DNA of 64,000 nt from Microlunatus elymi (GTDB lineage Bacteria; Actinomycetota; Actinomycetes; Propionibacteriales; Propionibacteriaceae): assembly GCF_007362775.1 (NCBI RefSeq), contig NZ_CP041692.1, positions 930,001-994,000 of the forward strand, in the 5' to 3' direction. Positions 15,734-64,000 of this stretch are shown here, piece after piece; position 1 is the stretch's first letter, and each line of letters starts with the position of its first letter. The notes below the pieces were generated by a model, which saw only the letters and a program-made list of their open reading frames with translations, ran no database searches and was not told the origin of the DNA. The position numbers were made by a program, and so were the translations under genes.

Positions 15734-15869
15734 CCGCCCAAACTCGCGACAACACGAGTTGTTGCTGCCAGATCGTCGAGATCGTCGCCGGAAGTCGTGT
15801 TGTCGCGAGTTGGTGCTGTCGGGTGGTCGGAATCGGCGCCGGAAGTCGTGTTGTCGCGACTTTGGGCGG
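15734..15869. repeat. Nested palindrome with a 51-bp tandem duplication
   Basis: Outer arms of 24 bases (15734-15757 and 15846-15869, one mismatch). A second inverted copy, TCGTGTTGTCGCGAGTT at 15795-15811, pairs perfectly (17 of 17) with the left arm too, so two alternative stems compete. The part 15758-15808 is repeated as 15809-15859 (51 bases each, about 80 percent alike). It lies in the divergent gap between the amidohydrolase and the DMT exporter. Confidence 0.8.
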
Positions 15870-15917
15870 CGGGGCGGTCGTACGAGGGCATGGCGTTCGG
15901 GTGGCTAGGGTGACCGG

Positions 15918-58544: not shown

Positions 58545-59123
58545 TCATCGGCGTACTCGGTATCGCAGGTGGAGCACCCGGTTCCCTTGGATGACGACAT
58601 GCGGATCCTCAAGCAGGCACACGGCGTCGATGGAGCCGAAGTAGCGCTTGCCGGAGCCGAACACGACGGGTACGACGTCCATGGCCACTTCGTCGACGAG
58701 GCCGAGTGCGAGGGCTTGGCCGCCGAGGTCGCCGGCTGCGATCGTGACGGTGCGCCCGGCGGCCAGTTCCTGGGCCCGGGTGACGCCTTGGGTGACGTCG
58801 TCGATGAAGTGGTAGGACGCTTCGGGATGCCAGCCGGCGGGCTTGGGCCGGTGAGAGACCACGACCACGTGGTCACCTACCGGCGGTGTGCCGTCCCATC
58901 CGTTCATGATGTCGAACAGGTGGCGCCCGATGACCATCGCGCCGACCTCGCTCCACTGTGTTCTGACGTAGTCGGCCGAGGCTTTCGACACTTTGAACGA
59001 ACCGCCCTCGGTCAGTGGAACGTCGCCGTTGAAATACCAGTCGAACAACGGCCCGATGTCGTCGTTGTCGTCGGCGATGTATCCGTCGACCGAGACCACG
59101 TTGGCCATCACGATGCTTCCCAC
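58545..59123 (-). CDS. RibD/dihydrofolate-reductase-like family protein
   Basis: A 192-residue NADPH-binding reductase of the RibD C-terminal family. It starts VMANVVSVDGYIADDNDDIGPLFDWY, has VGAMVIGRHLFDIMNGW and VVVVSHRPKPAGWHP, and ends HLRYRV. Such proteins are common in actinobacteria; they are not true DHFR, and the role is unknown. GTG 59123 has AAGGAGG 7 bases upstream. It follows the methyltransferase gene by 43 bases and may be co-transcribed. Confidence 0.87.
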   Translation of the reverse strand: MGSIVMANVVSVDGYIADDNDDIGPLFDWYFNGDVPLTEGGSFKVSKASADYVRTQWSEVGAMVIGRHLFDIMNGWDGTPPVGDHVVVVSHRPKPAGWHPEASYHFIDDVTQGVTRAQELAAGRTVTIAAGDLGGQALALGLVDEVAMDVVPVVFGSGKRYFGSIDAVCLLEDPHVVIQGNRVLHLRYRVRR

Positions 59124-59166: not shown

Positions 59167-60201
59167 TCAGGGCTTGCTGCCGATGACGGCGCCGTTCGCG
59201 CCCGGGGCTTCGAACCGGATGGTGTGGATGTCGCGGAAGCCGGCGTCGTGGAGCCAGCCGGTGTACTCCGCGCTCGTGTAGTTGCGGCCCTCGGTCTCGA
59301 TCAGCATGTTCATGCTCATCAGCGCGGCGGCCGGAGGCCCGGTCTTGTCGTCATCGACGAGGAGTTCGGCGATGATCACCTTGCCTCCGCTCCGCAGCCC
59401 TTCCCAGCACTTGCGCAGAATGTCGCGATCGTGCTGCTCGTTCCAGTCGTGCATGATCATGGACAGCAGTACGACGTCATGGCCGGACGGCAATGCTGGA
59501 TCGCTGAAGAAGTCGCCGACGACGGTCTCGATGCGCTGTGACAGGCCGGCCCGACTGATTTTGCTGGTAGCGATTTCGGTGATGGGTGACAGCTCGTAGA
59601 CCGTGGCGGTGAGGTCCGGATACCGCTTGCAGAGTTCGATGTCGAACGCTGCTGAGCCTCCCCCGAGGTCGAGCAGCTTGTGGGAGCCGCTGAGGTCGAC
59701 CACGTCTGCGAGCACACGCGCGGTGAACGTCGACAACGAGTGCATCGCTTCCCAGAAGCCTGCCAGCAGCTGGGGGTCTTCACCGTCGAACAGCGACCCC
59801 TGTCGCTCCGGGTCCCAGGTGGTGGGGCGGTTGGTGCGGACCGCCTCGACCAGCCTTCCCCACCCCTCGTACAGCCGCTGGTCGAGCATCTGAACGAAGC
59901 CACCGAAGTAGTACGGCGTACCCCGGACCAGGTATTCCTCCGCCAAGGCGCTGTTGACGTATCGGCCGTGGTTGCCCTCCAACAAGCCGAGCGCGGCGCA
60001 GCCGGTGAGGAGCAGCTCTGCGGGCCGCTGGTCGATCTCGAGATCTTCGGCAACGTCCGCTGGCGTCACCCCGGAACTCCCGGACAGTCGCGAGAACAGA
60101 TCGAGTTCGTGGGCGACGGCGAGCGTCTTGGATGCCCAGAAGCCTGTCGCCACCTGCATCAGCGGCACCGGCGACAGCACCTTCTCAGGGTCTTCCAGCA
60201 T
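59167..60201 (-). CDS. SAM-dependent O-methyltransferase
   Basis: A 344-residue class I O-methyltransferase of the acetylserotonin / plant-type group. An N-terminal dimerisation winged helix (ATGFWASKTLAVAHELDLFSRL through RYVNSALAEEYLVRGTPYYFGG) precedes the SAM site LLDLGGGSAAFDIELCKRYPDLTATVYEL and the catalytic His in LLSMIMHDWNEQHD. In secondary metabolism such enzymes methylate small phenols; here it lies divergent from a LuxR-type regulator that may control it. Substrate unknown. Confidence 0.9.
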   Translation of the reverse strand: MLEDPEKVLSPVPLMQVATGFWASKTLAVAHELDLFSRLSGSSGVTPADVAEDLEIDQRPAELLLTGCAALGLLEGNHGRYVNSALAEEYLVRGTPYYFGGFVQMLDQRLYEGWGRLVEAVRTNRPTTWDPERQGSLFDGEDPQLLAGFWEAMHSLSTFTARVLADVVDLSGSHKLLDLGGGSAAFDIELCKRYPDLTATVYELSPITEIATSKISRAGLSQRIETVVGDFFSDPALPSGHDVVLLSMIMHDWNEQHDRDILRKCWEGLRSGGKVIIAELLVDDDKTGPPAAALMSMNMLIETEGRNYTSAEYTGWLHDAGFRDIHTIRFEAPGANGAVIGSKP

Positions 60202-60408
60202 TGCATTCTTCCTCTCAGTCTTGTCCTACCTCGGTCCGGTAGCACCGCGGCCGAGTCGAGGGGTGAGCGGCGTCAGGCCGTGCGGTACCCCTGACCGGCG
60301 GGGACTCGGACGGCCCGTGATGCCGGCCGTCCTGGATGGACACGTTCACCCTCTCCGGGCGCGCGTTCAGATCCCATCCCCCGGTGGGCAGGCATCTTTG
60401 GCCCGGAC

Positions 60409-60424
60409 CCCTACATATGGAGGG
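60409..60424. promoter_or_regulatory. Dyad upstream of the LuxR gene
   Basis: CCCTACATATGGAGGG, a 16-base dyad with one mismatched pair, 36 bases before the regulator start in the 259-base divergent gap. A possible regulator binding site for the methyltransferase and its own gene; weak evidence. Confidence 0.35.
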
Positions 60425-61102
60425 TGGGGAAGCGCGCCCGAAGCGGGCACACTAGCGAGAATGACCTTGAGAACCGTCGAGTTCGGGTTGGACGCTGTCC
60501 AGGACGCAGCGCTGAGCGCGGGCAGCGGTGAGGAGCTCTTCGAGCAGGTTTCCAGTCGGCTGCGCCGGATCATCCCGTTCGACGGTGCGACCTGGTTCGC
60601 GACCGTCCCGTCGACCGTTCTGGCCACCCTTCCCGTTCGTGTGGAGAACATCGAGGATGGTCATTGCGACACATTCTGGGAGCGCGAACACCAGGTGGAG
60701 GACGTGCTGCTGTTCCGTGACCTCGCGCGTACCCGGTCGGGTGTCGGCACCCTTCACCAGGAGACGGCGGGGGCACCTGAACGCAGTGCCCGCGCCCGCG
60801 AGTTCCTCCATCCGCAGGGGTACGGCGACGAGTTGCGCGGCGTCTTCCGTACGGGATCGAGCACCTGGGGTGTGGTCGGGCTGCTCCGCGAGCAGAAAAG
60901 GCCACGATTCACACAACGAGACACTCGAGTCCTGAGCAACCTTGGTTCTGCGATCGCCGACGGACTGCGCCGGCTCGCCGCCCGTCGGGCCGATGCCGCA
61001 GTAGAGGACGGTGCGCTGGGGACGCTGCTCTACGACACCGACGGCCGCATGCTCTCCCGCGATGCGGCAGCGTCCCACTGGCTCGGCGAACTGGTCGGCC
61101 AT

Positions 61103-61148
61103 GAGTGGGGTGGCACCACGACAGAGAGTGGGGTGGCACCACGACAGA
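61103..61148 (+). repeat. Tandem 23-bp repeat, two identical copies
   Basis: The unit starts GAGTGGGG and ends CACGACAGA; copies are 61103-61125 and 61126-61148 with no differences. Length is not a multiple of three, which breaks the LuxR frame. One copy would restore it. Confidence 0.95.
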
Positions 61149-61211
61149 GTTGAGCAATGCCACGCCCGAGTTGAGCAATGCCACGCCCGAGTTGAGCAAA
61201 GCCAGACCAGA
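61149..61211 (+). repeat. Tandem 21-bp repeat, three copies
   Basis: GTTGAGCAATGCCACGCCCGA twice exactly (61149-61169, 61170-61190) and a third with five changes (61191-61211). It encodes the heptad ELSNATP, ELSNATP, ELSKARP in the second frame. It is probably a diverged relative of the 23-bp unit next to it. Confidence 0.92.
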
Positions 61212-61807
61212 ACTGAGCATGATCTTCGCCGCGGTGACTCGGGCACCGATGGTCGCCGCCCGCCGGGAAGGCACCCCGGCGATCTCCCGCATCCGAGCCC
61301 GCTCGGGGCGATGGATCATCGTGCAAGCCTCCTCGCTCCAGGGGCTGGACGGATCGACGGGCCCCATCGCGGTGACGATCGGCCCGGCCATGTCATCCCA
61401 GATCGCTCCGATCATCATCGAGGCCTACGGCCTGACTCCCCGCGAACAAGACATCACCAAGGCGGTCGCGCGCGGCCTATCCAACGCGGAGATCGCCGCA
61501 GCCCGACACCTCTCGCCCCTGACCGTCCGAGACCACCTCAAAGCCATCTTCGCAAAGGTCGGCGTCAGCACCCGCGGCGAACTCGTCGCCAAACTCTTCG
61601 CCGACCACTATCGCCCGACCATCCACGCCCCCGGCGCGGCCACACACGCCTTCTTCTGACCGCGGAACGTCAGCATTCGACTCGTACCCAACGATTCCAC
61701 GTCGTTCGCACCGTGCACCAGCGGATGGATCCGACCCGACACCTGTAAGCCAGGAAGACAACCTATCGACCCGGCCGTGTCTCACGGCATCCTCGAGGGA
61801 CATGCAG

Positions 61808-62478: not shown

Positions 62479-62677
62479 ATGACAAGGACTCGGAAGGTCG
62501 ATGGCATCGAATGCCTGCCGATCTACCTGGTGTCTGCGAAGCCGCCCCGGGTGATCAGCGAGGACGACTTCATCGACAGCATCCCGCTTCCCGAGTTGAT
62601 CGGTCGCCTTGAGCCTGGAGATCACCTTTACCTGGTCGACTACGCCAGCAACCCGGGACGGACCCGGCTCACGCAGC
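62479..62677 (+). pseudogene. 5' fragment of an unknown gene cut by an IS256-family element
   Basis: About 66 residues, MTRTRKVDGIECLPIYLVSAK...LVDYASNPGRTRLTQ, with GGGAGA 9 bases before the ATG. I do not recognise the family. The frame runs into the IS without a stop and is in phase with the transposase, so a fused protein could be made. The rest of the gene would lie beyond the element. Confidence 0.6.
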
Positions 62678-64000
62678 GGGACTGTAATTTTAACGGTGTA
62701 ACTCCTGAGACGAAGGAGACACCTGTGACTGACGTGACGAGTAGGGATGTGGCTGCTGCTGACGGGCAGGAGCTGTCGGCCAGCGATCAGCAGCTGGTGC
62801 GCGAGCTGACCGATCGGGCCCGGGCCAACGGGTTGCAGCTGACCGGTCAGGGCGGCTTGCTGGGCCGGCTGACGAAGATGATCGTCGAGGGCGCCCTGGA
62901 GGGTGAGATGGATGATCACCTGGGGTATGCCAAGCATGATCCGGTCGGCCGGGACGGCGGTAACTCCCGCAACGGCTACCGGGCCAAGACGCTGTTGACC
63001 GAAGCCGGGCCGGTTGATGTTTCGGTGCCGCGGGACCGGGACGGCAGTTTCGAGCCGACGATCGTGGCGAAGCGGCAGCGGCGACTGTCTGGGGTGGAGG
63101 ACCTAGTGATCTCGCTGTCGGCGAAGGGACTCACGACCGGGGAGATTTCGGCGCACCTCGCCGAGGTGTATGGGGCGGAGGTGTCGAAACAGACGATCTC
63201 GACGATCACCGACCGGGTGATGGAGGGGCTGGCCGCCTGGCAGTCTCGTCCGTTGGACCCGGTGTATGCGGTGCTGTTCATCGACGCGATCCAGGTCAAG
63301 ATCCGGGAGGGTGAGGTCTGCAACCGGCCGATCTACCTGGCCCTGGGTGTCACCGCCGACGGTGAGCGTGACGTGCTCGGCCTGTGGGCCGGTGAGCACG
63401 GCGACGGGGAAGGTGCCAAGTACTGGCTGCGAGTGCTGACCGAGATCAAGAATCGTGGCACCAACGATGTGTGCATGCTGGTCTGCGACGGGCTGACCGG
63501 ACTCCCTGACGCGGTGTCGGCGGTGTGGGACAAGACGATCGTGCAGACCTGCATCGTGCATCTGCTGCGGAACTCGTTCAAATACGCCTCGAAGAAGGAC
63601 TGGGGGTCGGTCGCCAAGGACCTGAAACCGGTGTATACCGCCGCCTCCGAGGCCGAAGCGCTGGACCGGTTCGCCGACTTCAGCTCCAAGTGGGAGAAGC
63701 GTTACCCGGCGATCATCCGGCTGTGGACCAACGCTTGGGCAGAGTTCGTCCCATTCCTGCAGTTCGACCGCGAAATCCGCACCGTGATCTGCACGACGAA
63801 TGCGATCGAGTCGATCAACGCCCGACTCCGGCGAGCGGTCAATGCCCGCGGTCATTTCCCCACCGAGCAGGCAGCGCTGAAGTGCCTGTACCTGGCGATC
63901 ATGAGTCTCGATCCGACCGGCCGAGGACGCAAACGCTGGACCAACCGATGGAAGGCAGCACTCAACGCCTTCGACATCACCTTCGACGGACGCCTATCCG
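62678..64000 (+). mobile_element. IS256-family insertion sequence, left part (partial)
   Basis: The left end is near 62678, where GGGACTGTAATTTTAACGG resembles the IS256-type terminal repeat (GGACTGTAA...). The transposase gene starts 47 bases inside. The right end is outside the window, so a target duplication cannot be checked. Confidence 0.85.
62725..64000 (+). CDS. IS256-family transposase (3' end outside window)
   Basis: 425 residues are visible without a stop. KMIVEGALEGEMDDHLGY, GNSRNGYRAKTLLTEAGPVDVSVPRDRDGSFEP, LYAVLFIDAIQVKIREG-type segment PVYAVLFIDAIQVKIR with the first catalytic Asp, MLVCDGLTGLPDAVSAVW with the second, TCIVHLLRNSFKY, and TVICTTNAIESINARLRRAVNARGHFPTEQAALKCLYLAI with the catalytic Glu. 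GTG start at 62725 after GAAGGAG. No frameshift, so it appears intact to the window edge. Confidence 0.93.
   Translation, partial: MTDVTSRDVAAADGQELSASDQQLVRELTDRARANGLQLTGQGGLLGRLTKMIVEGALEGEMDDHLGYAKHDPVGRDGGNSRNGYRAKTLLTEAGPVDVSVPRDRDGSFEPTIVAKRQRRLSGVEDLVISLSAKGLTTGEISAHLAEVYGAEVSKQTISTITDRVMEGLAAWQSRPLDPVYAVLFIDAIQVKIREGEVCNRPIYLALGVTADGERDVLGLWAGEHGDGEGAKYWLRVLTEIKNRGTNDVCMLVCDGLTGLPDAVSAVWDKTIVQTCIVHLLRNSFKYASKKDWGSVAKDLKPVYTAASEAEALDRFADFSSKWEKRYPAIIRLWTNAWAEFVPFLQFDREIRTVICTTNAIESINARLRRAVNARGHFPTEQAALKCLYLAIMSLDPTGRGRKRWTNRWKAALNAFDITFDGRLS

What the first reader, a model, noticed from the sequence alone, without database searches (positions are those of the whole stretch)
60461..61659. 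A 23-bp tandem duplication turns a LuxR regulator off and could work as a reversible switch
Two exact 23-bp copies abut at 61103-61148 inside the gene. The GAF-like first part and the LuxR DNA-binding part are in different frames, and removal of one copy joins them exactly (1,176 bases, 391 residues, linker GHEWGGTTTELSNATP). Directly next to it are three 21-bp copies coding for ELSNATP heptads, so the region is repeat-prone. Copy-number slippage of a non-triplet repeat is the classic mechanism of phase variation, but it is rarely seen in actinobacterial regulators. The divergent O-methyltransferase and RibD-like genes would be the switched targets.
Basis: partly seen in the sequence, partly recalled or inferred. 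Interest (0 to 1): 0.75.

Follow-up and report, generated by a model that had tools for sequence, protein, structure and literature searches.

The report
Frameshifted LuxR regulator beside slipping repeat
A gene for a DNA-binding regulator in an actinobacterium carries a 23-base tandem copy that breaks its reading frame; relatives have the unit once and an unbroken gene, so this looks like a fresh, perhaps accidentally reversible, loss of function rather than an evolved switch.

Summary
Two exact 23-bp copies abut at 61103-61148 and leave the two halves of a LuxR-type regulator in different frames; beside them lie 21-bp heptad copies (two exact, one 17/21). In 14 homologues read, the frame is unbroken here. 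The closest (83-86% identity) lacks 23 bp and 42 bp of the array, so both expansions are recent in this lineage. By a medium-confidence model the repeats sit in a length-variable loop of a PAS-like middle domain, not in a linker between domains.

The switch reading is possible but unsupported: the two-copy state is known from one genome, and no homologue checked carries an exact tandem array. In the five closest whole-genome relatives the regulator is divergent from a FAD-linked oxidoreductase gene; this genome has no orthologue of it, and an O-methyltransferase gene stands in its place. The genome also holds 12 copies of one IS256 element at 100% identity. Substitution rates show no long decay. 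Best reading: a recent slippage frameshift in a regulator that has lost its usual partner gene, reversible by accident (as in pneumococcal capsule duplications) but not a selected phase-variation switch.

The parts
60461..61153 (+). N-terminal part of the regulator, ATG to premature TGA (230 residues)
   Evidence: start matches that of the 83% orthologue; matches 8-209 of NF041232
61103..61125 (+). first 23-bp copy
61126..61148 (+). second, abutting exact 23-bp copy; absent from the orthologue in G009
   Evidence: alignment
61147..61209 (+). three 21-bp heptad units (two exact, third 17 of 21); the orthologue in G009 lacks 42 bp here
   Evidence: sequence
61105..61659 (+). frame that carries the C-terminal part with the LuxR-type HTH
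   Evidence: PF00196 1.8e-11; matches 228-360 of NF041232
60289..60460 (+). upstream region conserved with the regulator in G009, up to just before the start of the FAD-oxidoreductase gene there
   Evidence: blastn block 60289-61664 against L125 8765-10077, 80.7%
60409..60424 (.). palindrome-like box, possible operator (inference)
   Evidence: only exact match to CCCTACRTNTGNAGGG in the genome, but hits with up to 2 mismatches are fewer than for the reversed control pattern (19 v. 42)
59167..60201 (-). O-methyltransferase, divergent neighbour; stands where relatives have the FAD-linked oxidoreductase
   Evidence: PF00891 1.5e-39
58545..59123 (-). RibD_C-domain protein downstream of the O-methyltransferase
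   Evidence: PF01872 1.4e-7; 32% and 28% relatives near O-methyltransferase orthologues in G154 and G009

Best explanation
This is a BagY/FevT-like LuxR-family regulator freshly broken by replication slippage. Its middle domain has a loop coded by heptad (21-bp) repeats that has grown and shrunk in frame in this lineage. One more slip, of 23 bp, was out of frame, so translation stops inside the loop and the DNA-binding part is not made. The regulator had already lost, or was losing, its usual divergent partner gene (a FAD-linked oxidoreductase), in a genome with a recent IS burst, so the loss was probably tolerated. Two exact 23-bp copies will occasionally collapse to one, so the lesion may revert, but nothing shows that it is kept as a switch. 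Shown: arrays, frames, unbroken homologues, loss of the partner gene. Inferred: slippage as the cause, loss of activity, tolerance, reversibility.
For: The frame is broken only by the array. 14 homologues have one open frame through the region. The G009 orthologue lacks 23 bp and 42 bp exactly in this loop, and the Propionicimonas MAG lacks 7 further residues, so the loop varies by heptads. No exact tandem array of unit 10-60 bp in 17 homologous genes. The FAD-linked oxidoreductase is adjacent and divergent in 5 of 5 closest whole genomes (G009, G182, G238, G336, G225) while G000 has at best a 35% relative elsewhere; in the family, 16 of 24 genomes with a regulator homologue have it adjacent and divergent. 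12 IS256 copies at 100% identity over the queried 1.3 kb, one of them about 1 kb downstream of the regulator. No excess of amino-acid changes against G009 (14 v. 13 in the N-part, 5 v. 6 in the C-part, L065 as outgroup; dN/dS 0.23 and 0.13), so the break is young.
Against: Preserved constraint is also what a gene that is often ON would show. The upstream region is conserved and the O-methyltransferase could be a working target. Partner loss and frameshift are not shown to be linked. FAD genes are also missing beside some unbroken homologues (L066, L067, L069-L071), so a missing FAD gene does not by itself mean decay. Reads or sister strains could change the picture.
Confidence: 0.62

Rival explanations
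1. A selected phase-variation switch: the 23-bp unit toggles between one and two copies and turns the regulator, and with it the divergent O-methyltransferase/RibD-like genes, on and off.
For: Unit not a multiple of three, exact copies, repeat-prone loop; constraint kept; conserved divergent upstream region; O-methyltransferase divergent to regulator homologues in L066 and G014. The same kind of duplication is reported as reversible for pneumococcal capsule genes (passages seen in PMC4022640 and PMC4243769).
Against: Seen in one genome only; single unit in G009; no exact array in 17 homologous genes. From one copy there is about one base of homology to renew the duplication (inference from the 47-base array), which makes the switch lopsided. 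The usual partner gene is gone.
Confidence: 0.15
2. Assembly or culture artefact: the second copy is an assembly error or a mutation of the sequenced clone only.
For: Single genome; no reads available to me.
Against: The genome is one contig with 100% completeness; the neighbouring heptad expansions of 42 bp are in frame, as real evolution would leave them. A clone-level mutation is in fact compatible with the best explanation.
Confidence: 0.1
3. Two-piece regulator: both halves are made, the C-part from GTG 61105, TTG 61150 (which overlaps the TGA stop) or ATG 61219, or by frameshifting in the 46-base overlap.
For: Both frames are open at 61105-61150, and in-frame start codons exist there.
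Against: By eye no convincing ribosome-binding site in the 20 bases before these starts, and no X XXY YYZ slippery heptamer in the overlap; the break falls inside the middle domain of the model; none of the 14 homologues is split.
Confidence: 0.05

Closest known systems
Spontaneous tandem duplications in pneumococcal capsule genes (cap3A, cap8E/wchA, tts; Waite et al. 2001, 2003; papers not read, known from references and passages in PMC4022640 and PMC4243769)
   Same: A tandem duplication inside an open reading frame inactivates the gene; described there as reversible sequence duplication.
   Different: There, reversion was reported; here only one static state is known, the gene is a regulator, and the host is an actinobacterium.
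LuxR-family regulators BagY/FevT (NCBIfam NF041232), of the bagremycin/ferroverdin clusters (passages of PMC6692506)
   Same: The orthologue in G009 aligns over almost the whole model (12-359 of 367, 4.8e-88); the two window halves match their own halves.
   Different: 295.5 bits against a curated cut-off of 700; the usual neighbour in relatives is a FAD-linked oxidoreductase, and I did not search for a bag/fev-type cluster.
Contingency loci with simple sequence repeats (slipped-strand mispairing; general knowledge)
   Same: A non-triplet repeat within a gene changes the frame.
   Different: Classic loci have many short units kept across strains; here there are two long units in one genome.

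Membership tests
LuxR/NarL-type HTH proteins (PF00196 GerE) | C-terminal GerE HTH above the gathering score | tested here: met
   43.9 bits against 23.5, in the C-part frame only
BagY/FevT (NF041232) | score over NCBIfam's curated cut-off (700 bits) | tested here: not met
   Orthologue in G009 295.5 bits; window halves 144.2 and 137. A relative, not filed as a member
Phase-variable contingency locus | repeat unit whose copy number changes the reading frame | tested here: met
   23 mod 3 = 2; frame offset 2
Phase-variable contingency locus | repeat array kept in relatives | tested here: not met
   single unit in G009; no exact array of unit 10-60 bp in 17 homologous genes
Phase-variable contingency locus | both states found in one population, and reversible | not testable with these tools
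   no reads, no second strain held (one genome per species)
Tandem-duplication inactivation of the pneumococcal capsule kind | exact tandem duplication within an ORF that truncates the product | tested here: met
Tandem-duplication inactivation of the pneumococcal capsule kind | reversion by loss of one copy | not testable with these tools
   needs culture or reads
Pseudogene | frame broken relative to unbroken homologues | tested here: met
Pseudogene | relaxed constraint or further lesions | tested here: not met
   14 v. 13 and 5 v. 6 lineage-specific residues; dN/dS 0.23 and 0.13. Expected if the break is young

The most novel reading that the evidence does not exclude
The loop is a two-level mutable element in a sensor-type regulator: in-frame heptad gains and losses tune the middle domain, and occasional out-of-frame slips of about the same length switch the whole regulator off and on, so that an actinobacterial regulator evolves by slippage both gradually and as a switch, with a newly captured O-methyltransferase as its target.
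Probability: 0.12. Interest if true: 0.6.

Novelty: new member of a known kind. Interest (0 to 1): 0.27.

Why it matters
If it is only a fresh frameshift, it is an ordinary case of slippage in a repeat-rich loop, useful mainly as a warning that a broken regulator with a tandem copy is not yet a switch. If one-copy and two-copy cells coexist, it would be a phase-variable regulator in an actinobacterial family where my literature searches (listings only) showed no such case. The by-product, a conserved divergent pair of a LuxR-type regulator and a FAD-linked oxidoreductase (16 of 24 family genomes with a regulator homologue), gives a testable regulator-target pair.

Tried and rejected
Old pseudogene: rejected for lack of excess changes. 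Whole-genome repeat proneness: 20 stretches (400 kb of 5.12 Mb) held 9 exact tandem arrays of unit 10-150 bp. Four lay in called frames (units 15, 15, 11, 12), one overlapped the first bases of a frame (14), four lay outside (16, 28, 52, 16); none visibly broke a frame by my simple ORF caller. So the genome is not free of such arrays, but two with units over 20 bp within about 100 bp of one gene stand out. Remnant of the FAD gene in the window: tblastn gave only chance-level hits (best E 0.083). Regulon by the upstream box: one exact site, but fewer near-matches than the reversed control, so no claim. Plasmids and phages: DNA search of plasmids gave 3 records at 67-74%; protein search 34 records, all under 60% identity; phages none for 40001-64000. 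First genome-contig scan found no relative. Not followed: a handful of distant hits flagged with one stop inside (for example G258, G274, G266, G237, G254, rated 32-37%); I did not look whether these are end stops, so the count of unbroken homologues is limited to the 14 read (L072, a partial hit, was left out; L048 and L049 are second fetches of L065 and L079).

The name of the host genus is not from a call: G009 has 5,683,123 bases, which I recall as the length of Microlunatus phosphovorus NM-1; the family would be Propionibacteriaceae, in keeping with the Propionicimonas MAG (L065; its contig length, 65798, is that of G182:C84).

Full report
OBSERVATION. Two exact 23-bp copies lie head to tail at 61103-61148 (TRF 61103-61149, 100% matches; only two sites with up to 3 mismatches, none expected). 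They are followed by 21-bp units at 61147-61209, two identical and one with 17 of 21 matches. The N-part runs from ATG 60461 to TGA 61151-61153. The C-part frame is open from 61105 and ends at 61659. Frame offset 2 equals 23 mod 3. No other exact tandem array with a unit of 10-300 bp occurs in the window.

WHAT THE GENE IS. The C-part has a LuxR-type HTH (PF00196, 43.9 bits). No Pfam family matches the N-part at 0.001. Both halves match NCBIfam NF041232 (BagY/FevT), N-part 8-209, C-part 228-360 of 367 positions (144.2 and 137 bits; the unbroken G009 orthologue has 295.5; curated cut-off 700). It is therefore a relative, not a filed member. BagY and FevT are LuxR-family regulators of the bagremycin and ferroverdin clusters (passages of PMC6692506). 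A model of the Propionicimonas orthologue (mean pLDDT 69.7, pTM 0.46, 10 sequences) has an alpha/beta N-domain, a long helix (152-180), a second alpha/beta domain with PAS-like order (187-280) and the HTH (283-351). The loop that carries the repeats lies at about 213-220, between helices 202-212 and 221-237, hence within the second domain.

RELATIVES. In 20 genomes of the genus, 7 (own included) have a homologue of the N-part. The best is in G009 at 83%, in one open frame; its C-part is 86% identical. Aligned to it, the window has an extra 23 bp and an extra 42 bp in the loop and no other indel in the gene. The Propionicimonas MAG (77% to G009) has 7 residues fewer than G009. So the loop has changed by heptads in frame, and the 23-bp step is the odd one out. 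Fourteen distinct homologues read (41-100% identical to the G009 protein) keep one open frame through it. Seventeen homologous genes hold no exact tandem array of unit 10-60 bp. The TRF array is one base longer than two units, so a new duplication starting from one copy would have had about one base of homology. This makes OFF-to-ON easier than ON-to-OFF (inference).

NEIGHBOURS. DNA similarity to G009 covers 60289-61664 only, that is the gene and its upstream region up to just before the start of the next gene (L125 8765-10077, 80.7%). In G009 that next gene is a FAD-linked oxidoreductase (PF01565, 6.2e-24). It is adjacent and divergent in 5 of 5 closest whole genomes (G009, G182, G238, G336, G225), whereas the window's genome has at best a 35% relative elsewhere. 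In the family, 24 genomes have a regulator homologue (many only 25-40% identical, so paralogues are mixed in). In 16 of these a FAD-linked oxidoreductase (E at most 1e-90) is adjacent and divergent. It is not adjacent in the own genome, G004, G013, G014, G008 and G019. G056 and G107 do not appear in the part of the list that was shown, so their search is not confirmed. Against a universal rule: L066, L067, L069, L070 and L071 show no FAD gene in the flanks held; L068 and L072 have almost no upstream flank.

In the window the O-methyltransferase (59167-60201) takes that place. Its 72% orthologue in G009 is about 990 kb from the regulator. Orthologues (E at most 1e-60) occur in 6 of 194 family genomes, own included. 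In G154 the FAD oxidoreductase and the O-methyltransferase follow each other on one strand, with MocR-like and RibD-like genes next to them and no regulator match in the 8 kb read. RibD-like and MocR-like genes also flank the O-methyltransferase in G009 and G012. A distant O-methyltransferase is divergent to a regulator homologue in L066 (36%) and G014 (31%). A simple history would be a FAD-methyltransferase operon divergent from the regulator, from which the FAD gene was lost here; this is inference, and no remnant of the FAD gene is found in the window. The methyltransferase thus may or may not be a target.

STATE OF THE GENE. Against G009 with L065 as outgroup, the window has 14 and G009 13 own residues in the N-part, 5 and 6 in the C-part; dN/dS 0.23 and 0.13. 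There is no sign of long decay. The genome carries 12 copies of an IS256 element at 100% identity over the queried 1.3 kb, plus two partial pieces at 100% and one 69% relative; 40 of 165 first-look candidates were scored, so this may be a lower bound. One copy starts about 1 kb downstream of the regulator. This points to recent genome change and fits tolerance of lost functions, but does not prove it.

BACKGROUND RATE. In a 400-kb sample of the genome, 9 exact arrays of unit 10-150 bp were found: four in called frames, one overlapping the first bases of a frame, four outside. Units over 20 bp: two (28 and 52 bp), both outside called frames. None visibly breaks a gene by this simple caller.

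MECHANISM AND VERDICT. Most likely: slippage in a loop that is repeat-rich and tolerant of length, one step out of frame, regulator lost recently, in a genome where its usual partner gene is already missing. Reversion by loss of a copy is plausible. In pneumococcus, duplications in capsule genes are called spontaneous and reversible (passages in PMC4243769), with an expected reversion of at most about 1e-5 for an insertion of nine bases at longest (passage in PMC4022640); the original papers (Waite 2001, 2003) were not read. A selected switch is not excluded but has no positive evidence beyond the anatomy. Literature searches for actinobacterial or LuxR cases (listings only) showed none that I could recognise. 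Searches of open-access papers cannot prove absence.

WHERE THE HOST SITS. No call names it.

Noticed in passing
G009 C1:2051976-2052495 (L010 846-1365): Four exact head-to-tail copies of a 129-bp unit (520 bases) just upstream of a paralogous regulator of the same family in the nearest relative; one frame reads through it with a 43-residue repeat.
   Followed up: no
window 62640-64000: IS256-family element that runs off the window's end; 12 copies at 100% identity over the queried 1.3 kb in this genome, and one more that looks split in two pieces at 1096936-1099604.
   Followed up: partly
L125, L168, L127, L128, L129: A divergent pair of BagY/FevT-like regulator and FAD-linked oxidoreductase is widespread in the family: 16 of 24 genomes that have a regulator homologue.
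   Followed up: partly
L180 6334-11172 (G154), L124 4282-9813 (G009), L179 5919-9835 (G012): O-methyltransferase, MocR-like regulator and RibD-like protein genes recur together; in G154 with the FAD-linked oxidoreductase. Possibly a small uncharacterised pathway.
   Followed up: partly
window 15755-15880: 51-bp tandem repeat, about 2 copies, 83-85% matches.
   Followed up: no
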